A DNA stretch of 64,000 bases from Mytilus galloprovincialis. Lineage: Eukaryota > Mollusca > Bivalvia > Mytilida > Mytilidae. The notes beneath the pieces are model-generated. The model did not search any database. It saw nothing but the letters and a program-made list of their open reading frames with translations, and had not been told where the DNA came from. The translations under genes were made by a program, and so were the position numbers. Below are positions 1 through 40,500 of the stretch, piece by piece (position 1 is the first letter of the stretch; each line of letters starts with the position of its first letter). Location: assembly GCF_965363235.1 (NCBI RefSeq), contig NC_134845.1, positions 81,979,913 through 82,043,912 of the forward strand, written 5' to 3'.

Positions 1-3000
1 GAACACCTAAATGTCAAATAAACTTAATGTAATTTTTTTCCCTCCAATTGCAAGTTATTTCAAGCATAACTGTTAAGTTTTGTCTCAGTCAGATCTATAG
101 TTTCAGAGAAAATCACTATAATGTAAGGCCATATCCTACGGCAATTTCAGTCTTATTTCTTCGACAAATCCAAATTTCAGTGTATCATTATAAAATGCAG
201 TGTTGACTAATATCTGATCAAAAACTCATGATCTATGCATTCAAACAATTAAATAGAATACAAAAGACAACTTTTAGATGATAAACAATTTTATTGCACC
301 TTTTAGAGTTCATTTGAAGGTCTGTTTTGGTCTGTTTTGGTCCATTTTTCCTCCTTCCTTCCTTTTTCATCAAAACTTGATATCTTTTGTCTAAAAAATA
401 AAACAAATGTGATTATTTCCCCACAAAAATGATATAAATGTAATGTTAAATCAATAATTAAAGTGTTTTAGCTGAAAGAACTGTCTCTATAAATGTTAAC
501 AGTCTACACGGAAGTTTCTAGAAGCCCTTATGTGTAACTCGAGTTTTTAGTCTGTTCGCCTAGTGTGACAAATAACGGTTCCCTTTCAGTCAACCATTTA
601 TTGTTACTGGTATCAAAGTCTTTTTATTTACTCATAACAGTATATTTCTAATAGATTTACACAAAGTGTCCACTTTCTTGTATTTTACATTAGAAAATGG
701 GGAGAAAGAGTAATAAAAAATACCTCAAAATGTTTTAAAAAAGGGTTATGTCCCTTGGAATGCTGGTACAAAAAATAATTGGTAAGAATTATAAAGTTTA
801 AGTATGTGAGACTGGATTCTGATGTGTATAAATCCAGGGCAAATAAGTGTTTAGATGATTTATTGTCTGTGCAAAATGTAGATGGCACAATGGCAAATTG
901 TAAACTTTTGCGGCCAAAAAAAACACAAAAAACATGATGATAGTTGATACTTACTTTAATGCTGAAGTGTCATCTGCAGACCAATTCACATATAAGATTT
1001 TTCAACAGAATGCTCTTCAGAACATGTGAACACTGAAATAAAAAATTCACATGTTGTATAAACAAAACTGTTAGGGTATTATTTAAAATTTAACACAGTA
1101 AACTAAATATAGCTTTGTCTGTCCACCCATTTGACTTAGAAAACACCCGTAAACCCCCATTTCAAGGCAATTTTACCTCAAACGTGCTTTCTGTGTCTCA
1201 ATCCATTCCGAATAGTCCATGTTTACAATGTATGAACTGGTTTATTAATAACTTTTAAAAATGAAAGTACAATAAGGTCACGAGTGCACATGTAGTTTCC
1301 CTAAAGAACACCTAAATGTCAAATAAACTTAATGTAATTTTTTTCCCTCCAATTGCAAGTTATTTCAAGCATAACTGTTAAGTTTTGTCTCAGTCAGATC
1401 TATAGTTTCAGAGAAAATCACTATAATGTAAGGCCATATCCTACGGCAATTTCAGTCTTATTTCTTCGACAAATCCAAATTTCAGTGTATCATTATAAAA
1501 TGCAGTGTTGACTAATATCTGATCAAAAACTCATGATCTATGCATTCAAACAATTAAATAGAATACAAAAGACAACTTTTAGATGATAAACAATTTTATT
1601 GCACCTTTTAGAGTTCATTTGAAGGTCTGTTTTGGTCTGTTTTGGTCCATTTTTCCTCCTTCCTTCCTTTTTCATCAAAACTTGATATCTTTTGTCTAAA
1701 AAATAAAACAAATGTGATTATTTCCCCACAAAAATGATATAAATGTAATGTTAAATCAATAATTAAAGTGTTTTAGCTGAAAGAACTGTCTCTATAAATG
1801 TTAACAGTCTACACGGAAGTTTCTAGAAGCCCTTATGTGTAACTCGAGTTTTTAGTCTGTTCGCCTAGTGTGACAAATAACGGTTCCCTTTCAGTCAACC
1901 ATTTATTGTTACTGGTATCAAAGTCTTTTTATTTACTCATAACAGTATATTTCTAATAGATTTACACAAAGTGTCCACTTTCTTGTATTTTACATTAGAA
2001 AATGGGGAGAAAGAGTAATAAAAAATACCTCAAAATGTTTTAAAAAAGGGTTATGTCCCTTGGAATGCTGGTACAAAAAATAATTGGTAAGAATTATAAA
2101 GTTTAAGTATGTGAGACTGGATTCTGATGTGTATAAATCCAGGGCAAATAAGTGTTTAGATGATTTATTGTCTGTGCAAAATGTAGATGGCACAATGGCA
2201 AATTGTAAACTTTTGCGGCCAAAAAAAACACAAAAAACATGATGATAGTTGATACTTACTTTAATGCTGAAGTGTCATCTGCAGACCAATTCACATATAA
2301 GATTTTTCAACAGAATGCTCTTCAGAACATGTGAACACTGAAATAAAAAATTCACATGTTGTATAAACAAAACTGTTAGGGTATTATTTAAAATTTAACA
2401 CAGTAAACTAAATATAGCTTTGTCTGTCCACCCATTTGACTTAGAAAACACCCGTAAACCCCCATTTCAAGGCAATTTTACCTCAAACGTGCTTTCTGTG
2501 TCTCAATCCATTCCGAATAGTCCATGTTTACAATGTATGAACTGGTTTATTAATAACTTTTAAAAATGAAAGTACAATAAGGTCACGAGTGCACATGTAG
2601 TTTCCCTAAAGAACACCTAAATGTCAAATAAACTTAATGTAATTTTTTTCCCTCCAATTGCAAGTTATTTCAAGCATAACTGTTAAGTTTTGTCTCAGTC
2701 AGATCTATAGTTTCAGAGAAAATCACTATAATGTAAGGCCATATCCTACGGCAATTTCAGTCTTATTTCTTCGACAAATCCAAATTTCAGTGTATCATTA
2801 TAAAATGCAGTGTTGACTAATATCTGATCAAAAACTCATGATCTATGCATTCAAACAATTAAATAGAATACAAAAGACAACTTTTAGATGATAAACAATT
2901 TTATTGCACCTTTTAGAGTTCATTTGAAGGTCTGTTTTGGTCTGTTTTGGTCCATTTTTCCTCCTTCCTTCCTTTTTCATCAAAACTTGATATCTTTTGT

Positions 3001-3915
3001 CTAAAAAATAAAACAAATGTGATTATTTCCCCACAAAAATGATATAAATGTAATGTTAAATCAATAATTAAAGTGTTTTAGCTGAAAGAACTGTCTCTAT
3101 AAATGTTAACAGTCTACACGGAAGTTTCTAGAAGCCCTTATGTGTAACTCGAGTTTTTAGTCTGTTCGCCTAGTGTGACAAATAACGGTTCCCTTTCAGT
3201 CAACCATTTATTGTTACTGGTATCAAAGTCTTTTTATTTACTCATAACAGTATATTTCTAATAGATTTACACAAAGTGTCCACTTTCTTGTATTTTACAT
3301 TAGAAAATGGGGAGAAAGAGTAATAAAAAATACCTCAAAATGTTTTAAAAAAGGGTTATGTCCCTTGGAATGCTGGTACAAAAAATAATTGGTAAGAATT
3401 ATAAAGTTTAAGTATGTGAGACTGGATTCTGATGTGTATAAATCCAGGGCAAATAAGTGTTTAGATGATTTATTGTCTGTGCAAAATGTAGATGGCACAA
3501 TGGCAAATTGTAAACTTTTGCGGCCAAAAAAAACACAAAAAACATGATGATAGTTGATACTTACTTTAATGCTGAAGTGTCATCTGCAGACCAATTCACA
3601 TATAAGATTTTTCAACAGAATGCTCTTCAGAACATGTGAACACTGAAATAAAAAATTCACATGTTGTATAAACAAAACTGTTAGGGTATTATTTAAAATT
3701 TAACACAGTAAACTAAATACAGCTTTGTCTGTCCACCCATTTGACTTAGAAAACACCCGTAAACCCCCATTTCAAGGCAATTTTACCTCAAACGTGCTTT
3801 CTGTGTCTCAATCCATTCCGAATAGTCCATGTTTACAATGTATGAACTGGTTTATTAATAACTTTTAAAAATGAAAGTACAATAAGGTCACGAGTGCACA
3901 TGTAGTTTCCCTAAA

Positions 3916-4382
3916 TAGGTGTAATACCACCATTGATTTTTCCCTATTAGTCTTTGTTAAATTGGTACTTTTAAAAAAAATGTACAGAATTTACCTTTAT
4001 TTCAACCAAAGAAATACTTTGCATGAATAAAGTTTAATCCTTTCCAGTGCTACAGTGAAAATTTCACACTACATTTCATTGCATATAAGAAAGTAACCTG
4101 CACCGGAAGTAAACAATCACATTTTTACCAGGTTATTTACTGGTTACCTGCTTTGGCAACTATGTAACCTTAACTTTCCAAAATATTTTATAAGACCATC
4201 AAATAAAAAAAGAATGATGCTTTCAGACACCCAACATACATGTTTATGACTCAGAAAAATTTAAGTGCATTGAAATGCAGGGTTAATTTTCTACAACTGT
4301 CAAATTCAAGGGAATATTTTTTTAGACCTACTTTCGTATGCAACCGGATGTGGCGTATCATGATTTGGTGGTATTACACCTA
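3916..4382. mobile_element. Element B copy 1, MITE-like, inside satellite
   Basis: The ends are perfect 17-bp inverted repeats: TAGGTGTAATACCACCA at the left and TGGTGGTATTACACCTA at the right. The interior is AT-rich with no ORF of note, as expected for a non-autonomous DNA transposon. A diverged solo copy at 55336-55797 shows the element also exists outside the satellite, so it was probably captured by the array and amplified with it. The target duplication is ambiguous here (TA, or TAAA-like) because flanking A/T runs overlap the ends. Confidence 0.85.
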
Positions 4383-5689
4383 AAGAACACCTAAATGTCA
4401 AATAAACTTAATGTAATTTTTTTCCCTCCAATTGCAAGTTATTTCAAGCATAACTGCCAAGTTTTGTCTCAGTCAGATCTATAGTTTCAGAGAAAATCAC
4501 TATAATGTAAGGCCATATCCTACGGCAATTTCAGTCTTATTTCTTCGACAAATCCAAATTTCAGTGTATCATTATAAAATGCAGTGTTGACTAATATCTG
4601 ATCAAAAACTCATGATCTATGCATTCAAACAATTAAATAGAATACAAAAGACAACTTTTAGATGATAAACAATTTTATTGCACCTTTTAGAGTTCATTTG
4701 AAGGTCTGTTTTGGTCTGTTTTGGTCCATTTTTCCTCCTTCCTTCCTTTTTCATCAAAACTTGATATCTTTTGTCTAAAAAATAAAACAAATGTGATTAT
4801 TTCCCCACAAAAATGATATAAATGTAATGTTAAATCAATAATTAAAGTGTTTTAGCTGAAAGAACTGTCTCTATAAATGTTAACAGTCTACACGGAAGTT
4901 TCTAGAAGCCCTTATGTGTAACTCGAGTTTTTAGTCTGTTCGCCTAGTGTGACAAATAACGGTTCCCTTTCAGTCAACCATTTATTGTTACTGGTATCAA
5001 AGTCTTTTTATTTACTCATAACAGTATATTTCTAATAGATTTACACAAAGTGTCCACTTTCTTGTATTTTACATTAGAAAATGGGGAGAAAGAGTAATAA
5101 AAAATACCTCAAAATGTTTTAAAAAAGGGTTATGTCCCTTGGAATGCTGGTACAAAAAATAATTGGTAAGAATTATAAAGTTTAAGTATGTGAGACTGGA
5201 TTCTGATGTGTATAAATCCAGGGCAAATAAGTGTTTAGATGATTTATTGTCTGTGCAAAATGTAGATGGCACAATGGCAAATTGTAAACTTTTGCGGCCA
5301 AAAAAAACACAAAAAACATGATGATAGTTGATACTTACTTTAATGCTGAAGTGTCATCTGCAGACCAATTCACATATAAGATTTTTCAACAGAATGCTCT
5401 TCAGAACATGTGAACACTGAAATAAAAAATTCACATGTTGTATAAACAAAACTGTTAGGGTATTATTTAAAATTTAACACAGTAAACTAAATACAGCTTT
5501 GTCTGTCCACCCATTTGACTTAGAAAACACCCGTAAACCCCCATTTCAAGGCAATTTTACCTCAAACGTGCTTTCTGTGTCTCAATCCATTCCGAATAGT
5601 CCATGTTTACAATGTATGAACTGGTTTATTAATAACTTTTAAAAATGAAAGTACAATAAGGTCACGAGTGCACATGTAGTTTCCCTAAA

Positions 5690-6156
5690 TAGGTGTAATA
5701 CCACCATTGATTTTTCCCTATTAGTCTTTGTTAAATTGGTACTTTTAAAAAAAATGTACAGAATTTACCTTTATTTCAACCAAAGAAATACTTTGCATGA
5801 ATAAAGTTTAATCCTTTCCAGTGCTACAGTGAAAATTTCACACTACATTTCATTGCATATAAGAAAGTAACCTGCACCGGAAGTAAACAATCACATTTTT
5901 ACCAGGTTATTTACTGGTTACCTGCTTTGGCAACTATGTAACCTTAACTTTCCAAAATATTTTATAAGACCATCAAATAAAAAAAGAATGATGCTTTCAG
6001 ACACCCAACATACATGTTTATGACTCAGAAAAATTTAAGTGCATTGAAATGCAGGGTTAATTTTCTACAACTGTCAAATTCAAGGGAATATTTTTTTAGA
6101 CCTACTTTCGTATGCAACCGGATGTGGCGTATCATGATTTGGTGGTATTACACCTA
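5690..6156. mobile_element. Element B copy 2
   Basis: Same 17-bp terminal inverted repeats and interior as the copy at 3916; it lies between A4 and A5. Confidence 0.85.
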
Positions 6157-8768
6157 AAGAACACCTAAATGTCAAATAAACTTAATGTAATTTTTTTCCC
6201 TCCAATTGCAAGTTATTTCAAGCATAACTGCCAAGTTTTGTCTCAGTCAGATCTATAGTTTCAGAGAAAATCACTATAATGTAAGGCCATATCCTACGGC
6301 AATTTCAGTCTTATTTCTTCGACAAATCCAAATTTCAGTGTATCATTATAAAATGCAGTGTTGACTAATATCTGATCAAAAACTCATGATCTATGCATTC
6401 AAACAATTAAATAGAATACAAAAGACAACTTTTAGATGATAAACAATTTTATTGCACCTTTTAGAGTTCATTTGAAGGTCTGTTTTGGTCTGTTTTGGTC
6501 CATTTTTCCTCCTTCCTTCCTTTTTCATCAAAACTTGATATCTTTTGTCTAAAAAATAAAACAAATGTGATTATTTCCCCACAAAAATGATATAAATGTA
6601 ATGTTAAATCAATAATTAAAGTGTTTTAGCTGAAAGAACTGTCTCTATAAATGTTAACAGTCTACACGGAAGTTTCTAGAAGCCCTTATGTGTAACTCGA
6701 GTTTTTAGTCTGTTCGCCTAGTGTGACAAATAACGGTTCCCTTTCAGTCAACCATTTATTGTTACTGGTATCAAAGTCTTTTTATTTACTCATAACAGTA
6801 TATTTCTAATAGATTTACACAAAGTGTCCACTTTCTTGTATTTTACATTAGAAAATGGGGAGAAAGAGTAATAAAAAATACCTCAAAATGTTTTAAAAAA
6901 GGGTTATGTCCCTTGGAATGCTGGTACAAAAAATAATTGGTAAGAATTATAAAGTTTAAGTATGTGAGACTGGATTCTGATGTGTATAAATCCAGGGCAA
7001 ATAAGTGTTTAGATGATTTATTGTCTGTGCAAAATGTAGATGGCACAATGGCAAATTGTAAACTTTTGCGGCCAAAAAAAACACAAAAAACATGATGATA
7101 GTTGATACTTACTTTAATGCTGAAGTGTCATCTGCAGACCAATTCACATATAAGATTTTTCAACAGAATGCTCTTCAGAACATGTGAACACTGAAATAAA
7201 AAATTCACATGTTGTATAAACAAAACTGTTAGGGTATTATTTAAAATTTAACACAGTAAACTAAATACAGCTTTGTCTGTCCACCCATTTGACTTAGAAA
7301 ACACCCGTAAACCCCCATTTCAAGGCAATTTTACCTCAAACGTGCTTTCTGTGTCTCAATCCATTCCGAATAGTCCATGTTTACAATGTATGAACTGGTT
7401 TATTAATAACTTTTAAAAATGAAAGTACAATAAGGTCACGAGTGCACATGTAGTTTCCCTAAAGAACACCTAAATGTCAAATAAACTTAATGTAATTTTT
7501 TTCCCTCCAATTGCAAGTTATTTCAAGCATAACTGCCAAGTTTTGTCTCAGTCAGATCTATAGTTTCAGAGAAAATCACTATAATGTAAGGCCATATCCT
7601 ACGGCAATTTCAGTCTTATTTCTTCGACAAATCCAAATTTCAGTGTATCATTATAAAATGCAGTGTTGACTAATATCTGATCAAAAACTCATGATCTATG
7701 CATTCAAACAATTAAATAGAATACAAAAGACAACTTTTAGATGATAAACAATTTTATTGCACCTTTTAGAGTTCATTTGAAGGTCTGTTTTGGTCTGTTT
7801 TGGTCCATTTTTCCTCCTTCCTTCCTTTTTCATCAAAACTTGATATCTTTTGTCTAAAAAATAAAACAAATGTGATTATTTCCCCACAAAAATGATATAA
7901 ATGTAATGTTAAATCAATAATTAAAGTGTTTTAGCTGAAAGAACTGTCTCTATAAATGTTAACAGTCTACACGGAAGTTTCTAGAAGCCCTTATGTGTAA
8001 CTCGAGTTTTTAGTCTGTTCGCCTAGTGTGACAAATAACGGTTCCCTTTCAGTCAACCATTTATTGTTACTGGTATCAAAGTCTTTTTATTTACTCATAA
8101 CAGTATATTTCTAATAGATTTACACAAAGTGTCCACTTTCTTGTATTTTACATTAGAAAATGGGGAGAAAGAGTAATAAAAAATACCTCAAAATGTTTTA
8201 AAAAAGGGTTATGTCCCTTGGAATGCTGGTACAAAAAATAATTGGTAAGAATTATAAAGTTTAAGTATGTGAGACTGGATTCTGATGTGTATAAATCCAG
8301 GGCAAATAAGTGTTTAGATGATTTATTGTCTGTGCAAAATGTAGATGGCACAATGGCAAATTGTAAACTTTTGCGGCCAAAAAAAACACAAAAAACATGA
8401 TGATAGTTGATACTTACTTTAATGCTGAAGTGTCATCTGCAGACCAATTCACATATAAGATTTTTCAACAGAATGCTCTTCAGAACATGTGAACACTGAA
8501 ATAAAAAATTCACATGTTGTATAAACAAAACTGTTAGGGTATTATTTAAAATTTAACACAGTAAACTAAATACAGCTTTGTCTGTCCACCCATTTGACTT
8601 AGAAAACACCCGTAAACCCCCATTTCAAGGCAATTTTACCTCAAACGTGCTTTCTGTGTCTCAATCCATTCCGAATAGTCCATGTTTACAATGTATGAAC
8701 TGGTTTATTAATAACTTTTAAAAATGAAAGTACAATAAGGTCACGAGTGCACATGTAGTTTCCCTAAA

Positions 8769-9235
8769 TAGGTGTAATACCACCATTGATTTTTCCCTAT
8801 TAGTCTTTGTTAAATTGGTACTTTTAAAAAAAATGTACAGAATTTACCTTTATTTCAACCAAAGAAATACTTTGCATGAATAAAGTTTAATCCTTTCCAG
8901 TGCTACAGTGAAAATTTCACACTACATTTCATTGCATATAAGAAAGTAACCTGCACCGGAAGTAAACAATCACATTTTTACCAGGTTATTTACTGGTTAC
9001 CTGCTTTGGCAACTATGTAACCTTAACTTTCCAAAATATTTTATAAGACCATCAAATAAAAAAAGAATGATGCTTTCAGACACCCAACATACATGTTTAT
9101 GACTCAGAAAAATTTAAGTGCATTGAAATGCAGGGTTAATTTTCTACAACTGTCAAATTCAAGGGAATATTTTTTTAGACCTACTTTCGTATGCAACCGG
9201 ATGTGGCGTATCATGATTTGGTGGTATTACACCTA
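8769..9235. mobile_element. Element B copy 3
   Basis: Same ends and interior as the copy at 3916; it follows the A5-A6 pair. Confidence 0.85.
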
Positions 9236-11847
9236 AAGAACACCTAAATGTCAAATAAACTTAATGTAATTTTTTTCCCTCCAATTGCAAGTTATTTCAA
9301 GCATAACTGTTAAGTTTTGTCTCAGTCAGATCTATAGTTTCAGAGAAAATCACTATAATGTAAGGCCATATCCTACGGCAATTTCAGTCTTATTTCTTCG
9401 ACAAATCCAAATTTCAGTGTATCATTATAAAATGCAGTGTTGACTAATATCTGATCAAAAACTCATGATCTATGCATTCAAACAATTAAATAGAATACAA
9501 AAGACAACTTTTAGATGATAAACAATTTTATTGCACCTTTTAGAGTTCATTTGAAGGTCTGTTTTGGTCTGTTTTGGTCCATTTTTCCTCCTTCCTTCCT
9601 TTTTCATCAAAACTTGATATCTTTTGTCTAAAAAATAAAACAAATGTGATTATTTCCCCACAAAAATGATATAAATGTAATGTTAAATCAATAATTAAAG
9701 TGTTTTAGCTGAAAGAACTGTCTCTATAAATGTTAACAGTCTACACGGAAGTTTCTAGAAGCCCTTATGTGTAACTCGAGTTTTTAGTCTGTTCGCCTAG
9801 TGTGACAAATAACGGTTCCCTTTCAGTCAACCATTTATTGTTACTGGTATCAAAGTCTTTTTATTTACTCATAACAGTATATTTCTAATAGATTTACACA
9901 AAGTGTCCACTTTCTTGTATTTTACATTAGAAAATGGGGAGAAAGAGTAATAAAAAATACCTCAAAATGTTTTAAAAAAGGGTTATGTCCCTTGGAATGC
10001 TGGTACAAAAAATAATTGGTAAGAATTATAAAGTTTAAGTATGTGAGACTGGATTCTGATGTGTATAAATCCAGGGCAAATAAGTGTTTAGATGATTTAT
10101 TGTCTGTGCAAAATGTAGATGGCACAATGGCAAATTGTAAACTTTTGCGGCCAAAAAAAACACAAAAAACATGATGATAGTTGATACTTACTTTAATGCT
10201 GAAGTGTCATCTGCAGACCAATTCACATATAAGATTTTTCAACAGAATGCTCTTCAGAACATGTGAACACTGAAATAAAAAATTCACATGTTGTATAAAC
10301 AAAACTGTTAGGGTATTATTTAAAATTTAACACAGTAAACTAAATACAGCTTTGTCTGTCCACCCATTTGACTTAGAAAACACCCGTAAACCCCCATTTC
10401 AAGGCAATTTTACCTCAAACGTGCTTTCTGTGTCTCAATCCATTCCGAATAGTCCATGTTTACAATGTATGAACTGGTTTATTAATAACTTTTAAAAATG
10501 AAAGTACAATAAGGTCACGAGTGCACATGTAGTTTCCCTAAAGAACACCTAAATGTCAAATAAACTTAATGTAATTTTTTTCCCTCCAATTGCAAGTTAT
10601 TTCAAGCATAACTGCCAAGTTTTGTCTCAGTCAGATCTATAGTTTCAGAGAAAATCACTATAATGTAAGGCCATATCCTACGGCAATTTCAGTCTTATTT
10701 CTTCGACAAATCCAAATTTCAGTGTATCATTATAAAATGCAGTGTTGACTAATATCTGATCAAAAACTCATGATCTATGCATTCAAACAATTAAATAGAA
10801 TACAAAAGACAACTTTTAGATGATAAACAATTTTATTGCACCTTTTAGAGTTCATTTGAAGGTCTGTTTTGGTCTGTTTTGGTCCATTTTTCCTCCTTCC
10901 TTCCTTTTTCATCAAAACTTGATATCTTTTGTCTAAAAAATAAAACAAATGTGATTATTTCCCCACAAAAATGATATAAATGTAATGTTAAATCAATAAT
11001 TAAAGTGTTTTAGCTGAAAGAACTGTCTCTATAAATGTTAACAGTCTACACGGAAGTTTCTAGAAGCCCTTATGTGTAACTCGAGTTTTTAGTCTGTTCG
11101 CCTAGTGTGACAAATAACGGTTCCCTTTCAGTCAACCATTTATTGTTACTGGTATCAAAGTCTTTTTATTTACTCATAACAGTATATTTCTAATAGATTT
11201 ACACAAAGTGTCCACTTTCTTGTATTTTACATTAGAAAATGGGGAGAAAGAGTAATAAAAAATACCTCAAAATGTTTTAAAAAAGGGTTATGTCCCTTGG
11301 AATGCTGGTACAAAAAATAATTGGTAAGAATTATAAAGTTTAAGTATGTGAGACTGGATTCTGATGTGTATAAATCCAGGGCAAATAAGTGTTTAGATGA
11401 TTTATTGTCTGTGCAAAATGTAGATGGCACAATGGCAAATTGTAAACTTTTGCGGCCAAAAAAAACACAAAAAACATGATGATAGTTGATACTTACTTTA
11501 ATGCTGAAGTGTCATCTGCAGACCAATTCACATATAAGATTTTTCAACAGAATGCTCTTCAGAACATGTGAACACTGAAATAAAAAATTCACATGTTGTA
11601 TAAACAAAACTGTTAGGGTATTATTTAAAATTTAACACAGTAAACTAAATACAGCTTTGTCTGTCCACCCATTTGACTTAGAAAACACCCGTAAACCCCC
11701 ATTTCAAGGCAATTTTACCTCAAACGTGCTTTCTGTGTCTCAATCCATTCCGAATAGTCCATGTTTACAATGTATGAACTGGTTTATTAATAACTTTTAA
11801 AAATGAAAGTACAATAAGGTCACGAGTGCACATGTAGTTTCCCTAAA

Positions 11848-12314
11848 TAGGTGTAATACCACCATTGATTTTTCCCTATTAGTCTTTGTTAAATTGGTAC
11901 TTTTAAAAAAAATGTACAGAATTTACCTTTATTTCAACCAAAGAAATACTTTGCATGAATAAAGTTTAATCCTTTCCAGTGCTACAGTGAAAATTTCACA
12001 CTACATTTCATTGCATATAAGAAAGTAACCTGCACCGGAAGTAAACAATCACATTTTTACCAGGTTATTTACTGGTTACCTGCTTTGGCAACTATGTAAC
12101 CTTAACTTTCCAAAATATTTTATAAGACCATCAAATAAAAAAAGAATGATGCTTTCAGACACCCAACATACATGTTTATGACTCAGAAAAATTTAAGTGC
12201 ATTGAAATGCAGGGTTAATTTTCTACAACTGTCAAATTCAAGGGAATATTTTTTTAGACCTACTTTCGTATGCAACCGGATGTGGCGTATCATGATTTGG
12301 TGGTATTACACCTA
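11848..12314. mobile_element. Element B copy 4
   Basis: Same ends and interior as the copy at 3916; it closes the 3079-bp A-A-B higher-order unit 9238-12316. Confidence 0.85.
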
Positions 12315-14926
12315 AAGAACACCTAAATGTCAAATAAACTTAATGTAATTTTTTTCCCTCCAATTGCAAGTTATTTCAAGCATAACTGTTAAGTTTTGTC
12401 TCAGTCAGATCTATAGTTTCAGAGAAAATCACTATAATGTAAGGCCATATCCTACGGCAATTTCAGTCTTATTTCTTCGACAAATCCAAATTTCAGTGTA
12501 TCATTATAAAATGCAGTGTTGACTAATATCTGATCAAAAACTCATGATCTATGCATTCAAACAATTAAATAGAATACAAAAGACAACTTTTAGATGATAA
12601 ACAATTTTATTGCACCTTTTAGAGTTCATTTGAAGGTCTGTTTTGGTCTGTTTTGGTCCATTTTTCCTCCTTCCTTCCTTTTTCATCAAAACTTGATATC
12701 TTTTGTCTAAAAAATAAAACAAATGTGATTATTTCCCCACAAAAATGATATAAATGTAATGTTAAATCAATAATTAAAGTGTTTTAGCTGAAAGAACTGT
12801 CTCTATAAATGTTAACAGTCTACACGGAAGTTTCTAGAAGCCCTTATGTGTAACTCGAGTTTTTAGTCTGTTCGCCTAGTGTGACAAATAACGGTTCCCT
12901 TTCAGTCAACCATTTATTGTTACTGGTATCAAAGTCTTTTTATTTACTCATAACAGTATATTTCTAATAGATTTACACAAAGTGTCCACTTTCTTGTATT
13001 TTACATTAGAAAATGGGGAGAAAGAGTAATAAAAAATACCTCAAAATGTTTTAAAAAAGGGTTATGTCCCTTGGAATGCTGGTACAAAAAATAATTGGTA
13101 AGAATTATAAAGTTTAAGTATGTGAGACTGGATTCTGATGTGTATAAATCCAGGGCAAATAAGTGTTTAGATGATTTATTGTCTGTGCAAAATGTAGATG
13201 GCACAATGGCAAATTGTAAACTTTTGCGGCCAAAAAAAACACAAAAAACATGATGATAGTTGATACTTACTTTAATGCTGAAGTGTCATCTGCAGACCAA
13301 TTCACATATAAGATTTTTCAACAGAATGCTCTTCAGAACATGTGAACACTGAAATAAAAAATTCACATGTTGTATAAACAAAACTGTTAGGGTATTATTT
13401 AAAATTTAACACAGTAAACTAAATACAGCTTTGTCTGTCCACCCATTTGACTTAGAAAACACCCGTAAACCCCCATTTCAAGGCAATTTTACCTCAAACG
13501 TGCTTTCTGTGTCTCAATCCATTCCGAATAGTCCATGTTTACAATGTATGAACTGGTTTATTAATAACTTTTAAAAATGAAAGTACAATAAGGTCACGAG
13601 TGCACATGTAGTTTCCCTAAAGAACACCTAAATGTCAAATAAACTTAATGTAATTTTTTTCCCTCCAATTGCAAGTTATTTCAAGCATAACTGCCAAGTT
13701 TTGTCTCAGTCAGATCTATAGTTTCAGAGAAAATCACTATAATGTAAGGCCATATCCTACGGCAATTTCAGTCTTATTTCTTCGACAAATCCAAATTTCA
13801 GTGTATCATTATAAAATGCAGTGTTGACTAATATCTGATCAAAAACTCATGATCTATGCATTCAAACAATTAAATAGAATACAAAAGACAACTTTTAGAT
13901 GATAAACAATTTTATTGCACCTTTTAGAGTTCATTTGAAGGTCTGTTTTGGTCTGTTTTGGTCCATTTTTCCTCCTTCCTTCCTTTTTCATCAAAACTTG
14001 ATATCTTTTGTCTAAAAAATAAAACAAATGTGATTATTTCCCCACAAAAATGATATAAATGTAATGTTAAATCAATAATTAAAGTGTTTTAGCTGAAAGA
14101 ACTGTCTCTATAAATGTTAACAGTCTACACGGAAGTTTCTAGAAGCCCTTATGTGTAACTCGAGTTTTTAGTCTGTTCGCCTAGTGTGACAAATAACGGT
14201 TCCCTTTCAGTCAACCATTTATTGTTACTGGTATCAAAGTCTTTTTATTTACTCATAACAGTATATTTCTAATAGATTTACACAAAGTGTCCACTTTCTT
14301 GTATTTTACATTAGAAAATGGGGAGAAAGAGTAATAAAAAATACCTCAAAATGTTTTAAAAAAGGGTTATGTCCCTTGGAATGCTGGTACAAAAAATAAT
14401 TGGTAAGAATTATAAAGTTTAAGTATGTGAGACTGGATTCTGATGTGTATAAATCCAGGGCAAATAAGTGTTTAGATGATTTATTGTCTGTGCAAAATGT
14501 AGATGGCACAATGGCAAATTGTAAACTTTTGCGGCCAAAAAAAACACAAAAAACATGATGATAGTTGATACTTACTTTAATGCTGAAGTGTCATCTGCAG
14601 ACCAATTCACATATAAGATTTTTCAACAGAATGCTCTTCAGAACATGTGAACACTGAAATAAAAAATTCACATGTTGTATAAACAAAACTGTTAGGGTAT
14701 TATTTAAAATTTAACACAGTAAACTAAATACAGCTTTGTCTGTCCACCCATTTGACTTAGAAAACACCCGTAAACCCCCATTTCAAGGCAATTTTACCTC
14801 AAACGTGCTTTCTGTGTCTCAATCCATTCCGAATAGTCCATGTTTACAATGTATGAACTGGTTTATTAATAACTTTTAAAAATGAAAGTACAATAAGGTC
14901 ACGAGTGCACATGTAGTTTCCCTAAA

Positions 14927-15392
14927 TAGGTGTAATACCACCATTGATTTTTCCCTATTAGTCTTTGTTAAATTGGTACTTTTAAAAAAATGTACAGAAT
15001 TTACCTTTATTTCAACCAAAGAAATACTTTGCATGAATAAAGTTTAATCCTTTCCAGTGCTACAGTGAAAATTTCACACTACATTTCATTGCATATAAGA
15101 AAGTAACCTGCACCGGAAGTAAACAATCACATTTTTACCAGGTTATTTACTGGTTACCTGCTTTGGCAACTATGTAACCTTAACTTTCCAAAATATTTTA
15201 TAAGACCATCAAATAAAAAAAGAATGATGCTTTCAGACACCCAACATACATGTTTATGACTCAGAAAAATTTAAGTGCATTGAAATGCAGGGTTAATTTT
15301 CTACAACTGTCAAATTCAAGGGAATATTTTTTTAGACCTACTTTCGTATGCAACCGGATGTGGCGTATCATGATTTGGTGGTATTACACCTA
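14927..15392. mobile_element. Element B copy 5 (1 bp shorter)
   Basis: Identical ends. The internal A-run near position 70 has 7 A instead of 8, which shortens the higher-order unit 12317-15394 by one base. Confidence 0.85.
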
Positions 15393-16699
15393 AAGAACAC
15401 CTAAATGTCAAATAAACTTAATGTAATTTTTTTCCCTCCAATTGCAAGTTATTTCAAGCATAACTGTTAAGTTTTGTCTCAGTCAGATCTATAGTTTCAG
15501 AGAAAATCACTATAATGTAAGGCCATATCCTACGGCAATTTCAGTCTTATTTCTTCGACAAATCCAAATTTCAGTGTATCATTATAAAATGCAGTGTTGA
15601 CTAATATCTGATCAAAAACTCATGATCTATGCATTCAAACAATTAAATAGAATACAAAAGACAACTTTTAGATGATAAACAATTTTATTGCACCTTTTAG
15701 AGTTCATTTGAAGGTCTGTTTTGGTCTGTTTTGGTCCATTTTTCCTCCTTCCTTCCTTTTTCATCAAAACTTGATATCTTTTGTCTAAAAAATAAAACAA
15801 ATGTGATTATTTCCCCACAAAAATGATATAAATGTAATGTTAAATCAATAATTAAAGTGTTTTAGCTGAAAGAACTGTCTCTATAAATGTTAACAGTCTA
15901 CACGGAAGTTTCTAGAAGCCCTTATGTGTAACTCGAGTTTTTAGTCTGTTCGCCTAGTGTGACAAATAACGGTTCCCTTTCAGTCAACCATTTATTGTTA
16001 CTGGTATCAAAGTCTTTTTATTTACTCATAACAGTATATTTCTAATAGATTTACACAAAGTGTCCACTTTCTTGTATTTTACATTAGAAAATGGGGAGAA
16101 AGAGTAATAAAAAATACCTCAAAATGTTTTAAAAAAGGGTTATGTCCCTTGGAATGCTGGTACAAAAAATAATTGGTAAGAATTATAAAGTTTAAGTATG
16201 TGAGACTGGATTCTGATGTGTATAAATCCAGGGCAAATAAGTGTTTAGATGATTTATTGTCTGTGCAAAATGTAGATGGCACAATGGCAAATTGTAAACT
16301 TTTGCGGCCAAAAAAAACACAAAAAACATGATGATAGTTGATACTTACTTTAATGCTGAAGTGTCATCTGCAGACCAATTCACATATAAGATTTTTCAAC
16401 AGAATGCTCTTCAGAACATGTGAACACTGAAATAAAAAATTCACATGTTGTATAAACAAAACTGTTAGGGTATTATTTAAAATTTAACACAGTAAACTAA
16501 ATACAGCTTTGTCTGTCCACCCATTTGACTTAGAAAACACCCGTAAACCCCCATTTCAAGGCAATTTTACCTCAAACGTGCTTTCTGTGTCTCAATCCAT
16601 TCCGAATAGTCCATGTTTACAATGTATGAACTGGTTTATTAATAACTTTTAAAAATGAAAGTACAATAAGGTCACGAGTGCACATGTAGTTTCCCTAAA

Positions 16700-23457: not shown

Positions 23458-25733
23458 CTAGATCAAACGAATGTTTACAGAATGTGGCATTAACATTCTT
23501 ACCAGAGCAAAGCAAACCCCTAAAACACCTGCTCCAGCGAGAAAACTTTTAAATGTGTCTGCTTGTCTACTAGGACAATTTTCATTGACGGCTACAATCA
23601 TGGTATCGACAATTTTTCTTCTGTGAATATGTACGTATATAGGACCGTGTAACTTATAGACAGTATTAAATGTATCAATCGGTACATCTTTTAAAATGTG
23701 TCGATGTTCTTTTGTCTTGTTTTTTTCTTCCCGAAAGGTTTTAAGGTTTGGAAAAATATGTACGTATATAGGACCATGTAACTTATAGACAGTATTAAAT
23801 GTATCTATCTGTGCATCTTTTGAAATGCGTTCATGTTCTTCTGCTTTGGTCTTTTCTTCCCAAAAGGTTTTAAGCCTTGGAAAAATATTGTTATCTACAA
23901 CATCTATTTGTCTGGTGGCGTGTGGTTGTCGGACCTGAATCGATGTTCTTGAGTCATTGGAACTCTAAACGAAAGAAGATTTATGAGTAAAATAGCATTA
24001 TCAAAATCAAAATATAACAGGTTTATAATTTTTTCTTTTAATAAACCAGACAAACATTTTGTCTTCATGGGATTGATTATTAAAAGTAAAATCACAAAAA
24101 TGAAAAATTCAGACACACACCAAGTTTTATGTAAATACTATTAAAAACAAATATGACAACGTGTTTCAAAATTTGATTGAAGAGTCAGCAAAACAATTAT
24201 TTTGATATATGTTTATTCGTGTATGCAATTTATACCATAATCAACAGAAAAATTTCGTCATAGAATTTTTGATATACAAATGTATTTCATATCACTTTTT
24301 CATACAAATATGCATCATCTGAACTCTCTTTCTTCGAAAGGTTTTGAAATAGGTTACTGCAAAGGAATAACTTAAACATTATGTTAAATTCATTCCTTTA
24401 AAAAAGATAACAAATGGGTTGACCAGTATGGATATCTGTTCCCGTAAGGGAAGAAGGATATTCTAAAATTTTCATTACCTCTGTCTTTTCTCAAAACTGA
24501 CATTTTCAAATGAGTTTTACTAGCACGTTTGTGCTTATACACAAACACGATGGTTGTCACATGGATAGCAGAATCGGCTTACCCTTTTGGAGCAACTGAT
24601 ATCAACCATACATTTTATATTAGATTTGTATTACTCTGTCCTTTGGATTGTTTCTTGTTTTGTATTTTGTTAACTTCGTTTTGCATGATATTCTATGCCT
24701 TTGTAAGCTTGTATTTGACTAACGTGCCTGAATGTCGCTTTGCTATCTTCATTCTGTTATATATTTCAAGTGTAACTAAGAATACTCTTTGATCATAGAC
24801 AAAAAATACTAAAGTGACAATGAAACTCACCAGTCAAAAATTTACTGAGTATAAACCCGTTGCAAATTCTTTTACTATAAGACACATATAAGTCTCTCTT
24901 TAGATGCTTACACATTTATCATTATGGGTTATCGATAAATACCTTTCTGTTGATGTGTACGTATATCGGTCCATGTACATAATATACAGTGTTAAATGTA
25001 TCTATTTGGACGTCTTTTAAAATGTGTTGGTCTTCTTTCTTTGACTGCTCGTCCGAAACATGTTTCTCTCGACAGCCCATTTTCTGTGTATGTTCATCGC
25101 TAAAGGGCATTGTTTTGGTCTCAACAGTTACATTTCTTTTGATATGTACGTATATAGGTCCATGCAACTTATAGACACTGTTGAATGTGTCTATTTGTAC
25201 GTCGTTTGAAGTGATTCGGTATTCTCCTTTTGACTTTTCTTCCCAAAAATTCTGAAGTCTTCGAAAATTTTCGATGACCCCTTTGACAGCAGCGTTTGAA
25301 TCATAAAACTGTAACAAAAAAATATAATAAGAATATTTAGAAATTTAATTTAAATCTAGTGGTATAACTCAGTGCATCAAAAGCAAAAATAGTTGTTAGT
25401 CTTCATGAATATACATGGTATAGAAGACTCTTCAATGACCGTTATATCAAAAAATGAAAAAAAAACAAATTATGTCCGAAATTTAAGATCAATGAGACCT
25501 AAACTTTCGAAAGATTTTGGCAAATTCTGCAAACTATTGCCATTTCTGTGAAATATCAAAAGACATAAAACTTTCGAGACGTAACAGTTATATAGCATGA
25601 TTCATATTCGTATATCGCTTCATCCTATATGTAGATTTAAGTAAACCTGATAAAATGATCAGTGTTTAAATGTTTGTTAAAGTAACGTATCAAGATAAAT
25701 CCTTACATTCTTATCGTCATCAATGTTATCCAT
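23458..25733 (-). CDS. Membrane protein with four RHIM-like repeats (unrecognised family)
   Basis: Coding exons on the minus strand: 25733-25707, 25308-24943 and 23964-23458, all joined in phase 0 with GT-AG borders (donors GTAAGG and GTATTT; acceptors TTACAG and TTTAG). The start is the ATG at 25733, preceded by an acceptor (CTTACAG), so a 5' UTR exon probably lies upstream. The product is 299 aa. A ~43-residue repeat occurs four times. Its first part is charged (LKxFWEEKxKxEEH), and its core reads VQIDTFNTVYKLHGPIYVHI or a close variant, at residues 46-65, 109-128, 182-201 and 225-244. Residues ~269-290 are hydrophobic (FLAGAGVLGVCFALVRMLM), a likely C-terminal anchor. There is no signal peptide. 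The core recalls the RHIM pattern (I/V)Q(I/V)G-x-(Y/F)-N-x-hydrophobic, with Asp in place of Gly. The exon structure and repeats are seen directly; the amyloid role is inference. Confidence 0.75.
24540..24760 (-). repeat. Interspersed repeat R3, diverged, inside the intron
   Basis: Reads as the reverse complement of R3 copies at 56985 and 58648: GCTTACCCTTTTGGAGCA first, then a T-rich TTGTTTCTTGTTTTGTATT stretch. A plus-strand ORF across it is not evidence of a gene. Confidence 0.6.
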
Positions 25734-25749: not shown

Positions 25750-25898
25750 AAATTAAAATTACAATTACAGAAGGAAAATTATAATTATAATTACAGAAGG
25801 AGAATTAAAATTACAATTACAGAAGGAGAAGCAAAATTACAATTACAGAAGGAGAAGCAAAACTACAATTACAGAAGGAGAATTAAAATTACAATTAC
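25750..25898. repeat. ~26-bp minisatellite upstream of the RHIM-like gene
   Basis: About six copies of a unit close to AATTACAGAAGGAGAA plus AAAATTACA, differing by small indels. It abuts the 5'-most coding exon on its upstream (intron) side and contributes TTACAG acceptor-like strings only on the plus strand. Confidence 0.8.
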
Positions 25899-25993
25899 AG
25901 ATCAAACATTGTTTTTAGTGTGAACCCTTGTTTGTCTCTTTGTCTTTTTTTCCTTTGAATATTGTGTTATCTCTATAGCTTCAAATTTTAGTA

Positions 25994-27120
25994 CAGTTGG
26001 GGACAGACCAAGCATTACATAAAGTAAACGCAAGTTAACGCGGCGTGCACATATTTCGTTAGTTAACTTTAAATTTCGCGTTTACTAGTAAACGCCCGTT
26101 TACTTCATTTACGTTAACGCGGTCAAAATGGAAATTTCTAATGTCTACTCGAGTAAACGCGCGTTTACTCTGTGTCCGTTTAGTCAGTAGTAAACGGCCG
26201 TTTACTTCAGATTTCACAAGTTTAATTTTACGTAAAAGTAAACGGGCGTTTACTACAGATTTCTAAATTGTATTTTTACGTGCACTTTAAAGTAAACGCG
26301 CGTTTAATTTTCGCGTTAACTAATTGTGTATATTATAAAATAATCGTCGCGTGCATTTGTACATTTATTTATGTTGTTAAAATGACTTAATATTTTACGT
26401 ATTTGTGTTTTAAACCTTAACATTCAAAAACACTTTTTATTACAAATATAAACATTTATTAATTGCAAAAAAAAAATCAGTTCAAAAAACTTTCAACAGC
26501 GGCTTTTCTTCTTTGAACATTATCCGATCGTATCAACTCATCTCTAACTTCAGTAATGTTTTTGCCAGATCTTCTTAAACTTAATATCCTCTCACGAATG
26601 TAAACTGAAAGTCTTGTAGGTTTTACAGTTCCAGGACGAATTTCCATTTTGTTCTTATATGCAATTATTAATTTTCAATAAATTAATTAAAGAGGTGTCA
26701 TTTCTTTAAATGCAATCGTCAATATGTTGATCGAAAATGGACAGATGGATATTTTGATGTACCTTATCATATGATATATTAGGTCAGTGTATCCAGGATA
26801 CGAGGACAATCTGCGTTAACGCGCGTTAACTACAAACAGTAAACGGGCGTTTACTTTATTATACAAAATTGGAAGACACGCCTTTTTCGCGTTAACGCGA
26901 AGTAAACGCCCGTTTACTCTTTACAAAATTAGAAGACGCGCGGTTTTTGCGTTAACGCGGAGGTAAACGCGAAAGTAAACGCCCGTTTACTATTTATGTC
27001 TACTAAAATTTCGGAGTTAACGCAGAGTTAACGCGGCGTTTACATGAAGTGCACGCGAGTAAACGCCGCGTTAACTTTTAAGGCCCGTTTACATGTAATG
27101 CTTTGTCTGCACCCAACTGT
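25994..27120. mobile_element. Tc1/mariner-like TIR element with palindrome arrays
   Basis: Ends are CAGTTGGGGACAGACCAAGC and GCTTTGTCTGCACCCAACTG, inverted repeats of ~28 bp flanked by TA on both sides. A CAGT start and a TA duplication are typical of the Tc1/mariner superfamily. Subterminal blocks (about 26020-26320 and 26815-27085) are packed with palindromes of the form AGTAAACGSSCGTTTACT (for example 26087-26104) and TTAACGCG strings. The centre holds one short minus-strand ORF with a helix-turn-helix pattern. A full transposase catalytic domain is absent, so this copy is non-autonomous. Confidence 0.85.
26477..26647 (-). CDS. 56-aa helix-turn-helix ORF in TIR element (truncated transposase?)
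   Basis: The ORF runs ATG (26647) to TGA (26477), 56 codons. The protein starts MEIRPGTVKPTRLSVYIRER, followed by ILSLRRSGKNITEVRDELIR. The pattern R-x-R-I-(L)-x-L-R-x-x-G-x-(N/S)-I-x-E-(V/I) followed by L matches the first helix-turn-helix of Tc1/IS630-type transposases, which binds the element ends. The second DNA-binding helix set and the DDE domain are missing. It lies in the centre of the element, exactly between the two palindrome blocks. It may be a relic of a deleted transposase, or a retained DNA-binding peptide; the sequence cannot decide. Similarity was judged from memory of the family pattern. Confidence 0.55.
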   Translation of the reverse strand: MEIRPGTVKPTRLSVYIRERILSLRRSGKNITEVRDELIRSDNVQRRKAAVESFLN

Positions 27121-27448
27121 ACTTCAATGTCAAATTGACAGATTTAAATCGATATACATGCTGTGAAATAGTTTAGTAACGGATATAAGAAGTATTATCA
27201 TATATTTGTTATGAATATCTTGGGTTTTGCATATGCAATAACCTCAAAATGCCGGGGCAAAAAAGCGTGTATTGGTATTTTGTCCTGATTCCAAATGACG
27301 TGACGTCATTGCGTCCTCAGTTAACGACACTTTTGTGATAAAATGTGTCAGATTTTACCTGTTACGTTTCATTAAATTGTTTTAATTAAATTTTAATTTC
27401 TCTTTTCTGCAGAATTTAAATATGTGATAAATAGATTATAACATGTCT

Positions 27449-28754: not shown

Positions 28755-29085
28755 TTGAATCTAAGCGTCAATGATGAGTCTTAGATTATAATTTTGGTAC
28801 CTTTGATAACTATTTACACCACTGTGTCGATGCCACTGTCGGTGGAAGTTTTATCCCCGAGGGTATCTCCAGCCCATTAGTCAGCACTTTAGTGTTGACA
28901 TAAATAACAATTATAGTGTCATTTTTATAAATAAAGGCAACAGTAGTATACCGCTGTTCAAACTCATAAATTTCCTGTAACAAAACTTTTAATTTTACGA
29001 AAAACTAAGGATTTTCTTATCCCAGGAAAAGATTACCTAAGCCGTATTTGGCACAACTTTTTGGAATCTTTTGGCGTCATTACAA
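28755..29085 (+). repeat. Interspersed repeat R4, diverged
   Basis: It contains TTTTGGTACCTTTGATAACT, the TTTACACCACTG box, CCCGAGGGTATC and a GGATTTTCTTATCCCAGG block, in the same order as the copy at 35757. A short foreign piece (AGTAGTATACCGCTGTTC) belonging to repeat R5 interrupts it near 28940. Confidence 0.7.
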
Positions 29086-37500: not shown

Positions 37501-40500
37501 TTTTATTGGTCGAGACTATACCACGTGTCATTGAACAAATCTTCATATTCCCCGTCTGAAAATCATATTGCCCTCTGAGTTCATATTCCCCTCTAACATG
37601 TTTGGACTACATTATGCGACGTTACGCGCTGTTAATGTACATGAGGATTTAAAATTTTGTTTTTCAAATAGCGATCGCAAAAATCATTATCATGTTTAAC
37701 AATAATCAAATTTAGACGTTAAAACAAAAAGACTCCTAATTAACTTTTGATCCGTACTGTTTATAAATGTGTAAGTTGTGTTTAGTTTTTAAAAAAAGCG
37801 AATTAAGAAAAAACAATGTGTGCAAGCAAATATTTCATGTTAAGCATATTGATAGTGGAATAAAACATTCATTTCCCTTCGCTTCGAGAGACATGAAGAT
37901 TTATTCACCCTCGACAATCATATTTCCCTCGGGATAAGCCCTCGTGAAATATGAATATTCTTGGGTGAACAAATCTTCATATCTCCCTTATTCACGGAAA
38001 ATAAATGTTTAATATGTCATCATTTGCTTTGCTCAATCGAAATGTTATAACCTTTTTTTTTTCTTAGCTCGAAAAGTGGAAACTGCCCCCTTGATATAGA
38101 ACGGTACATGCATTTTTGAGTTGTGTTCATTAAGAACTTACCATAATATCAATATACATTGCTTAAATGTTGTAAAAGTGTATTGGTTACTATCTGTTCC
38201 AGAGAAACGTCTTAGTAAAAAGTGATATATTTGGTTTATTGTATTTGCTTCTAGGAGATACTGGGAAAATGTCATTGTACACGTTTTACACTTTAATTAT
38301 GTCATCCATACTATAATCTTTATATCTTATGTAATATACATGTACATATATGTCATAACGTGTTTTTTTTTATACATTTTATACTTTATTTAAGTATTCT
38401 TTTACACTTTATGCTATATATTTATTTGTTGATACTTTTATATACTTCAGTACATTTTATACTTTATTCAAGTATTCCATTAAATTTTATACTTTAAAAG
38501 CATTTTTTTTAATTACTTTTGTATTGCATTCATATGTTTATACCAACCCCTGATTCCTTAAAATTAATAAAATTACATTTTCCGAACACAAGTCCAAACA
38601 GATAATGTTTAAATTGCTGCTGTTCGTCTTTGGGTCTTGGTCAGACCCTTAATTTGGAGCAAACGTTTGCTCTTCACAGTAGATGAAGAATGGACCCGTG
38701 TTTCTGTAATTCCCCCCGTGCGTAAATAAAGCTGGTATACCTTGAGGTGAAATACTATCAGGAATTTATTTCGTATAACTATTCTTCATATACGTATGAC
38801 ATTGATTTATTTAAGTTTTTTTTTATATATTTCGTTTCTAGAGGAAGCGTGACTACAACAACTACACTCAATCCTATTGGAGGTGTAACATTCACTACGA
38901 AAAGATATTCAACCGATAGACCATATCCAACACACAAACCAAATGACAACACAGACAACTATTCATCGAGTAGCAGGAAGGCATCCGTGTGAGTATTGTT
39001 TTAAATAAACATGTTTCATGAACAACAAAGTTTATCGACAGGTTGTAGGTATCCCCATGGGCACTAATTGTGCCCCTTTAATAGCAGACTTGTTTTTTGT
39101 ACTGTTACGAATCACAGTTTATGATTAAACTCAGTACAGACCCGTCGAAATTGCATTTAATTGATAAATTCAACAACACTTACCGTTATCTTGATGATTT
39201 TTTTCATTAAATAATCAAGAATTTTCTCAATATACTGCTGAAATTTACCCCAAGGAACTTACTTTAAATAAATCAAATTTATTCGGTAATAACTGTCCTT
39301 TCCTGGATTTAGATATTTCGGTTTTAAACGGGAAACTCCACACAAAAATTTACGACAAACGGGACGATTTTTCGTTCCCTATTTTTAATTTTCCATTTTT
39401 AGATGTTGATGTTCCTTTGGCACCATCTTACGGTGTTTATATTTCACAGCTCGTTCGCTATGCCCGTGTCTGTTGCGACGTTTTTGATTTTAACGAACGT
39501 AATCTATGTATTACTGGTAAATTATTAAACCAGGGATATCGTTACCATAAATTACTTAAAACCTTTACTAAATTTTTCCAGAGATATAAAGATTTGGTTT
39601 TGAAGTTTGGTTGTACTTGTAGAAAACTTATTTCAAACGGGATAGCACATCCTCATTTTCACGGAAATGTTGTTAACCGTGCCCGAAAATTTCGAAATGA
39701 TTAATGTAAACTTATCGCTCCTTTAAATAAACTTATTCTAAAAGGTTACCAATTCAACATTGTAATAAAATCATTGAACATTGTTTTTATTGGTATAAAT
39801 ATAGATTTTGTTATCAGTAAATTAAAAGCAAACTAAATATTACTAGCATGTTATATACATACACACATTTCATGGATCTACAATCTGTCGATACCTGTAA
39901 CTTGGCATTGCACAAGGTTATGTTTTTCTCTGTTTATGACGTCTTTACACTAAATCCATTTGATGTTGGACGTGTACGGATTGATAGTTTAGTCTTAGAT
40001 GCATGATTTGTTTCATTAGTTGTTAGTGGCTTTGAACTAGCGGTCAGATAACTGCGAGTACTCTCAGATCTGTTCCTAGTGTCTTTTTTGTCGGGATGTA
40101 CAAGTACCCGGCCACGTCCACTTGTATTTTTGTCCATCTGATGAGTTAAGCCTTTTCCAACTGAGTTTTATAGTTCGTTCTTATGTTGTACTGTTATACC
40201 TCTGTCCCAGGTTAGGGGAGGGTTGGGATCCCGCTAACATGTTTGACACCGCCACATTATTTAAGTATGTGCCTTTCCCAAGTCAGGAGCCTGTAATTCA
40301 GTGGTTGTCGTTTGTTCATGTGTTACATTTTTGTTTTTCGTTCATTTTTTTTTATATAAATAAGGCCGTTAGTTTTCTCGTTTGAATTGTTTTACATTGT
40401 CTTATCGGGGCCTTTTATAGCTGACTATGCGGTATGGGCTTTGCTCGTTGTTGAAGGCCGTACGGTGACCTATAGTTGTTAATGTCTGTGTCATTTTGGT

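What the first reader, a model, noticed from the sequence alone, without database searches (positions are those of the whole stretch)
23458..25733. Three-exon gene for a membrane protein with four RHIM-like repeats
Seen: three phase-0 exons with GT-AG borders give an unbroken 299-aa protein. It has four copies of a ~43-residue unit with core VQIDTFNTVYKLHGPIYVHI, and a hydrophobic C-terminal segment. Known: RHIM motifs (RIPK1, RIPK3, ZBP1, TRIF; cryptic versions in insect Imd-pathway proteins) have the core (I/V)Q(I/V)G, followed by an aromatic, Asn and a hydrophobic residue, and form signalling amyloids. Here the same spacing is kept with Asp for Gly. Inference: a membrane-anchored scaffold whose tandem strand-turn-strand motifs could nucleate assemblies in immune or death signalling. 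I recognise no described family with this layout.
Basis: partly seen in the sequence, partly recalled or inferred. Interest (0 to 1): 0.78.

Follow-up and report, generated by a model that had tools for sequence, protein, structure and literature searches.

The report
Tail-anchored protein with four-fold repeat
The window holds a convincing animal gene for a probably membrane-tethered protein that carries four copies of a strongly conserved 20-residue motif not found elsewhere in its genome; its likeness to the RHIM cell-death motif does not stand out from chance, so it is an interesting orphan and not a shown immune amyloid.

Summary
The gene is convincing; the RHIM reading is not supported. 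Three phase-0 exons on the minus strand (25733-25707, 25308-24943, 23964-23458) give 299 aa with four 20-residue cores and a C-terminal hydrophobic segment. Of 20 core positions 15 are invariant, 10 of those 15 with silent codon changes; amino-acid change is depressed in 5 of 6 copy pairs (P 0.0046 or less), the sixth being a recent duplication. In the 1.385-Gb genome, searches found the motif only in these four copies. RHIM fails: the tetrad glycine is Asp in 4 of 4 copies, V-Q-I precedes it in 2 of 4. Pfam RHIM scores a mouse RIPK3 control at 33.6 bits (cut-off 20) but lists no repeat. The best repeat ties for sixth among six-frame fragments of the window in likeness to mouse RHIM. Most of the invariant block lies outside the tetrad. 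Two low-confidence models disagree on helix or strand. Most likely: a tail-anchored multivalent scaffold whose four motifs dock a partner or pair with each other. Expression, partner, fold and spread among species could not be tested.

The parts
25707..25733 (-). exon 1 (coding part), MDNIDDDKN, phase 0; an acceptor-like TTTCTTACAG 7 bases upstream of the ATG suggests a further upstream exon, coding or not
25309..25706 (-). intron 1, GT-AG, 398 nt
24943..25308 (-). exon 2, 122 codons, holds repeat copies 1 and 2
25141..25200 (-). repeat core 1, VQIDTFNSVYKLHGPIYVHI (aa 46-65)
24952..25011 (-). repeat core 2, VQIDTFNTVYYVHGPIYVHI (aa 109-128)
23965..24942 (-). intron 2, GT-AG, 978 nt
23458..23964 (-). 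exon 3, 168 codons plus stop, holds repeat copies 3 and 4 and the hydrophobic tail
23755..23814 (-). repeat core 3, AQIDTFNTVYKLHGPIYVHI (aa 182-201)
23626..23685 (-). repeat core 4, VPIDTFNTVYKLHGPIYVHI (aa 225-244)
23488..23547 (-). hydrophobic segment SFLAGAGVLGVCFALVRMLM (aa 271-290), predicted tail anchor, nine residues before the end
   Evidence: best 19-residue mean hydropathy 2.07; low-confidence helix over aa 263-289

Best explanation
A probably single-copy animal gene for a tail-anchored scaffold protein. Shown: a three-exon open frame; four copies of a 20-residue core kept by selection on the protein; a C-terminal hydrophobic segment ending nine residues before the stop; no other copy of the motif found in the genome. 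Inferred: the C-terminal segment is inserted into an internal membrane (ER or mitochondrial outer membrane), leaving a flexible, charged cytosolic arm that shows the motif four times. The motif acts as a short adhesive module, most likely by beta-strand pairing through the FNxVYxxHGPIYVHI half, either on a groove of a partner protein or between copies. Four copies give avidity and cluster partners on the membrane. The pathway is unknown.
For: Gene structure. Selection: in the cores dS is 0.81-1.72 and dN 0.044-0.094 for the five pairs other than 3-4; 2-3 residues differ against 5.5-8.9 expected, P 0.0046 or less in 5 of 5 (the pairs share copies and are not independent). Silent changes at 10 of 15 invariant positions, which argues against recent gene conversion. 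In the one pair whose lead-in is in register (copies 3 and 4) pN is 0.044 in the core and 0.19 in the 22 residues before it, at similar pS (0.14, 0.16). Hydrophobic tail. Motif found only here in the genome.
Against: The AF2 model of the repeat unit (pLDDT 55, 4 sequences) puts a helix on IDTFNTVYKLH and has no strand; DTFNTVYKLH also has a helix-type moment at P=0.051. The exon 3 model (pLDDT 34) has strands at the end of core 3 and within core 4 but at different places, so it is no support. No expression data, no relatives in other species, no partner. The 5' end is unproved, so an N-terminal domain or signal peptide could be missing.
Confidence: 0.42

Rival explanations
1. The repeats are RHIM or cryptic-RHIM motifs and the protein nucleates RHIM amyloids in immune or death signalling.
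For: Local likeness NDVQIDTFNSV to SEVQIGNYNSL of mouse RIPK3 (score 29; 2 of 2000 shuffles of copy 1 reach it; 13, 29 and 60 of 2000 for copies 2-4). RHIM-bearing RIPK1 is reported in zebra mussel (PMC12119088, passages), and a cockle iridovirus gene with CARD and RHIM resembles bivalve sequences (PMC12452177, passages).
Against: Tetrad Gly is Asp in 4 of 4; V/I-Q-V/I kept in 2 of 4; Pfam RHIM silent on the repeats although it scores the control at 33.6 bits; the best repeat only ties for sixth among the window's own six-frame fragments; no RHIM match in the genome at E<=1 or with the mouse query at E<=10, neither with a positive control in this genome.
Confidence: 0.06
2. A different, non-RHIM signalling amyloid or beta-solenoid: the four cores stack as rungs and template a partner, in the manner of fungal HET-s-type systems but with an unrelated motif.
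For: Repeated short core, strand propensity and hot spots, hydrophobic tail. Whether metazoans have signalling amyloids besides RHIM is named an open question (PMC7889193 section 10).
Against: No second protein with the motif found in the genome, whereas fungal and bacterial receptor-effector pairs share theirs (PMC7889193 passages and section 10); a diverged partner would be missed. HET-s-type pattern not met. AF2 unit model gives helix at low confidence.
Confidence: 0.12
3. Each lead-in plus core is a small folded module with helix, and the protein is a string of such domains.
For: FxxLKxFWEEK lead-in conserved in 3 of 4 copies; the AF2 unit model has two helices.
Against: Lead-in not clear in copy 2, spacing 43-73, pLDDT 55; no fold search was made because the models are too weak.
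Confidence: 0.15
4. Multi-copy precursor of secreted peptides, with the cores cut out at basic residues (KR after core 1, RK near core 2, RR near core 4).
For: Direct reading of the sequence; repeated conserved peptides between variable spacers are typical of such precursors (recalled).
Against: No signal peptide visible at the first ATG (by eye); copy 3 has no basic pair directly behind it; the C-terminal hydrophobic segment does not fit; the 5' end is unproved, so not excluded.
Confidence: 0.08
5. Not expressed as drawn: decayed or mis-joined gene.
For: No transcript evidence; the 140-codon frame of exon 2 is within the shuffle range; a DNA element with inverted ends lies about 250 bases upstream of the ATG (25980-27133).
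Against: The 168-codon frame of exon 3 exceeds the maximum of 147 in 30 shuffles of window 16901-64000; codon-level selection over both exons.
Confidence: 0.1

Closest known systems
RHIM (Pfam PF12721; RIPK1, RIPK3, ZBP1, TRIF; cryptic RHIMs of insect Imd-pathway proteins)
   Same: V-Q-I in 2 of 4 copies and, in 4 of 4, an aromatic residue then Asn beginning two residues after the fourth tetrad position
   Different: Asp for the tetrad Gly in 4 of 4; tetrad varies while most of the rest is invariant; extra invariant HGPIYVHI half; not recognised by the Pfam model
HET-s-related amyloid motifs (HRAM1-5) of fungi (PMC4518210, abstract and section 3 part 1)
   Same: short repeats of about 20 residues joined by variable linkers, in a membrane-linked protein
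   Different: the Gly with its hydrophobic pattern is not reproduced; linkers of 43, 53 and 23 residues where 154 of 155 fungal proteins have 6-18; four copies; no HeLo domain listed by Pfam
Tail-anchored signalling platforms such as MAVS (recalled)
   Same: C-terminal single membrane segment with a cytosolic assembly region
   Different: no CARD or other accepted Pfam domain; repeats in place of one domain

Membership tests
RHIM | core tetrad V/I-Q-V/I-G (PMC12119088 passages; G-(I,V)-Q-(I,V)-G in PMC7885112 passages) | tested here: not met
   VQID, VQID, AQID, VPID: full tetrad in 0 of 4 copies
RHIM | recognised by the Pfam RHIM profile | tested here: not met
   whole protein, 6 fragments and a 24-residue consensus: RHIM not listed at E up to 10, with HMMER's filters dropping most matches above about 0.1; control mouse RIPK3 RHIM 33.6 bits, cut-off 20
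RHIM | similarity to a real RHIM above background | tested here: not met
   best copy scores 29, tied sixth to eighth among 3,654 six-frame fragments of the window; against that, only 2 of 2000 shuffles of this copy reach 29
RHIM | forms amyloid or hetero-assembles with RHIM proteins | not testable with these tools
   needs a peptide assay
[quoted passage not shown]
   G absent in 4 of 4; V present in 3 of 4
HET-s-related amyloid motif | invariant Gly at position 19 with hydrophobic residues at 5, 8, 10, 16, 18 (PMC4518210 section 3 part 1) | tested here: not met
   placing the core's only Gly at 19, by hand, puts D, I, T, K/Y, H at those places: 1 of 5 hydrophobic, plus a T that the paper says also occurs at 10
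HET-s-related amyloid motif | Pfam PF11558 match | tested here: inconclusive
   not listed at E up to 10, no positive control run; the profile matched only 38 of 155 such proteins in PMC4518210; the genome search with it did not complete
HET-s-related amyloid motif | partner protein with the same motif | tested here: inconclusive
   none found in the genome at E<=10, but a diverged partner would be missed
tail-anchored membrane protein | hydrophobic segment close to the C-terminus | tested here: met
   aa 271-290 of 299, best 19-residue mean 2.07; the five best windows all overlap this segment
tail-anchored membrane protein | no N-terminal signal sequence | tested here: inconclusive
   the N-terminus from the first ATG is polar by eye, but the 5' end is unproved

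The most novel reading that the evidence does not exclude
A signalling amyloid of animals that is not RHIM: a four-copy membrane-anchored beta motif that nucleates assemblies by a core of its own (IDTFNxVYxxHGPIYVHI).
Probability: 0.07. Interest if true: 0.75.

Novelty: new variant of a known kind. Interest (0 to 1): 0.33.

Why it matters
The gene looks like a lineage-restricted protein whose most strongly constrained part is a 20-residue motif in four copies; the motif is a ready-made peptide for binding and assembly tests. If it did assemble by itself it would bear on the open question whether animals have signalling amyloids other than RHIM (PMC7889193 section 10). It is also a caution against reading RHIM into short strings: unrelated reading-frame scraps of one 64-kb window score against a real RHIM as well as these repeats do.

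Tried and rejected
RHIM by Pfam, by pairwise scoring and by genome search: rejected for the repeats. Whether this genome has true RHIM proteins is left open: neither genome search had a positive control in it (the tool's 14 control genomes gave one match, below the cut-off). HET-s-type motif: rejected on pattern and linker length. NCBIfam FlaI match (E 2.8e-6 for the 299-aa protein, 26.4 bits against a cut-off of 550): rejected as a sum of weak repeat matches (12.8 bits for exon 2 alone); two further NCBIfam lines at 13.3 and 12.1 bits are far below their cut-offs (145 and 80). Best Pfam line, Zona_pellucida at 14 bits (cut-off 24.6), and two weaker: rejected. PDB sequence lines at E 0.59-0.79, PHROGs lines at E 0.022 or worse and phage tblastn lines at E 6: rejected as chance. 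Genome matches L008 and L009 (18.3 bits, E 1.2, one stop inside): L008 read in one frame shows no repeat-like peptide; L009 was not read. Viral contigs (2 scans) and prokaryote genomes (1 scan): 31, 6 and 71 pattern stretches, 0 confirmed. No fold search was run, the models being too weak. Literature: RHIM with bivalve, mollusc, oyster, invertebrate and genus names and with amyloid terms, tail-anchored with bivalve and amyloid (0 papers), and the string HGPIYVH (0 papers). I saw no paper describing this protein in the listed rows, but listings were capped (20 of 41, 20 of 34, 15 of 4,762, where 14 of the 15 rows do not mention RHIM). In one search the comparison of the 22 residues before the core is out of register except for copies 3 and 4; only that pair is used. 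Peptide-precursor reading: kept as a rival, not rejected.

Full report
Observation. On the minus strand, exons 25733-25707, 25308-24943 and 23964-23458 join in phase 0 with GT-AG borders into a 299-residue frame with its stop ending at 23458. Introns are 27% and 29% GC against 37% and 36% in exons 2 and 3. The stop-free frame of exon 3 is 168 codons, above the maximum of 147 in 30 shuffles of window 16901-64000; that of exon 2, 140 codons, is not.

The repeats. The cores lie at aa 46-65, 109-128, 182-201 and 225-244. A profile of the four gives 69-72 bits on each and at best 9.1 bits (best domain) on any other six-frame fragment of the window. Copies 3 and 4 are a 129-nt tandem with 88% matches. 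The other spacings are 63 and 73 residues and the FxxLKxFWEEK lead-in is clear in three copies only. The common unit is therefore the 20-residue core.

Selection. For the five pairs other than 3-4, dS in the core is 0.81-1.72 and dN 0.044-0.094. Substitutions of the same kinds placed at random would change 5.5-8.9 residues on average; 2-3 are changed; P runs from 0 of 20,000 trials to 0.0046. The pairs share copies, so these are not five independent tests. For the recent pair 3-4 the test shows nothing (P 0.39). Of 20 core positions 15 are invariant and 10 of the 15 carry silent codon changes. So the core is coding, and its protein sequence was held while its DNA drifted. In pair 3-4, the only pair whose lead-in is in register, the 22 residues before the core change faster (pN 0.19 against 0.044) at a similar silent rate (0.16 and 0.14).

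Genome. The window lies in a 1.385-Gb assembly of 331 contigs, unnamed. A 26-residue query at E<=0.001 and a 21-residue core at E<=10 find the four copies of this gene and nothing else. Exon 3 at E<=10 finds this gene and two weak places (18.3 bits, E 1.2), of which the one read is not repeat-like. The exon 2 search did not complete. The search reads exon by exon and scores only the best candidates. The gene is therefore probably single copy, with no detectable second bearer of the motif. Relatives in other animals could not be searched; viral and prokaryotic collections gave none.

RHIM. RHIM is defined by the tetrad V/I-Q-V/I-G (PMC12119088 passages; PMC7885112 passages). Here it reads VQID, VQID, AQID, VPID. 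In human RIPK3, of the natural tetrad variants tried, two (TQIG, VQSG) did not activate NF-kB, while all variants still supported ZBP1-dependent death; in mouse RIPK3 the change of the tetrad Gln to Asp abolishes necroptosis although fibrils still form (PMC7955032 passages). I saw no test of Asp in the fourth place in the passages read. In mosquito cryptic RHIMs V and G of the core are called absolutely conserved (PMC9531809 passages). Pfam RHIM scores a 22-residue mouse RIPK3 query at 33.6 bits (cut-off 20) but lists neither the whole protein, nor any of six repeat fragments, nor a consensus with or without Gly put in. By ungapped scoring against the mouse RHIM the copies reach 29, 25, 21 and 19; shuffles of the same copy reach that in 2, 13, 29 and 60 of 2000, so there is some likeness, but seven other fragments of the window's six frames equal or exceed the best copy. 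A relaxed pattern that copies 1 and 2 fit is expected about once in 15 million residues, but it was written after the motif was seen. The likeness is what choosing one motif among many could give. HGPIYVHI, invariant in 4 of 4, lies outside the RHIM match. The Pfam RHIM search of the whole genome found nothing at E<=1 (63 candidates scored) and the mouse query nothing at E<=10; neither had a positive control there. True RHIM proteins are reported elsewhere in bivalves: RIPK1 of zebra mussel, and bivalve proteins resembling a cockle iridovirus gene with CARD and RHIM (PMC12452177 passages). PGRPs with RHIM are said not to have been found in molluscs (PMC9835746 passages).

Fold. Exon 3 alone folds with pLDDT 34: a helix over the hydrophobic tail (aa 263-289 of the protein), and strands at the end of core 3 and within core 4 that do not correspond. 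The repeat unit with four sequences gives pLDDT 55 and a helix over IDTFNTVYKLH with no strand, which speaks weakly against a strand-turn-strand motif. The fold is open.

Mechanism proposed. Tail anchor at aa 271-290, a charged flexible arm, and four adhesive motifs: a multivalent membrane scaffold that clusters a partner or itself. Shown: gene structure, repeats, selection, hydrophobic tail, apparent uniqueness. Inferred: expression, topology, docking, clustering. Rivals and probabilities are given in their sections.

Comparison. HET-s-type motifs have an invariant Gly at position 19, a hydrophobic pattern and loops of 6-18 residues in 154 of 155 sequences (PMC4518210 section 3 part 1); linkers here are 43, 53 and 23 residues and the pattern is not met. 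The question whether RHIM is the only signalling amyloid of metazoans is posed in PMC7889193 (section 10); nothing here answers it, but the core is a testable peptide. The paper on the evolutionary link of RHIM and HET-s (PMC4262963) is not held and was not read.

Verdict. Convincing and unusual orphan gene; RHIM interpretation not supported. Interest 0.33.

Noticed in passing
window 1-16400: Tandem satellite: a 94-codon frame recurs 11 times at steps of 1305 or about 1774 bases; the first two copies are identical over 1000 bases.
   Followed up: partly
window 25980-27133: Element with 41-nt inverted ends (83% complementary), rich in GTAAACGnnCGTTTAC palindromes, with a 65-codon frame at 26477-26674 minus that looks by eye like a transposase N-terminus (no Pfam match); about 250 bases upstream of the gene's ATG.
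   Followed up: partly
window 18553, 42499, 45687, 58198 (+ strand): Four open frames with PPPYSxC near their end, closely alike at 42499 and 45687: possibly a local family of membrane proteins with PPxY-type tails.
   Followed up: no
window 28810-28974 (- strand): Terminal-exon-like 54-codon frame behind an acceptor-like TTACAG; no NCBIfam match. Possibly the end of the next gene upstream.
   Followed up: partly
window 25751-25901: 26-bp minisatellite of 5.8 copies directly before the acceptor of exon 1.
   Followed up: no
window 39198-39701 (+ strand): 168-codon frame that looks by eye like a piece of a mobile-element protein; no Pfam match at E<=1.
   Followed up: no
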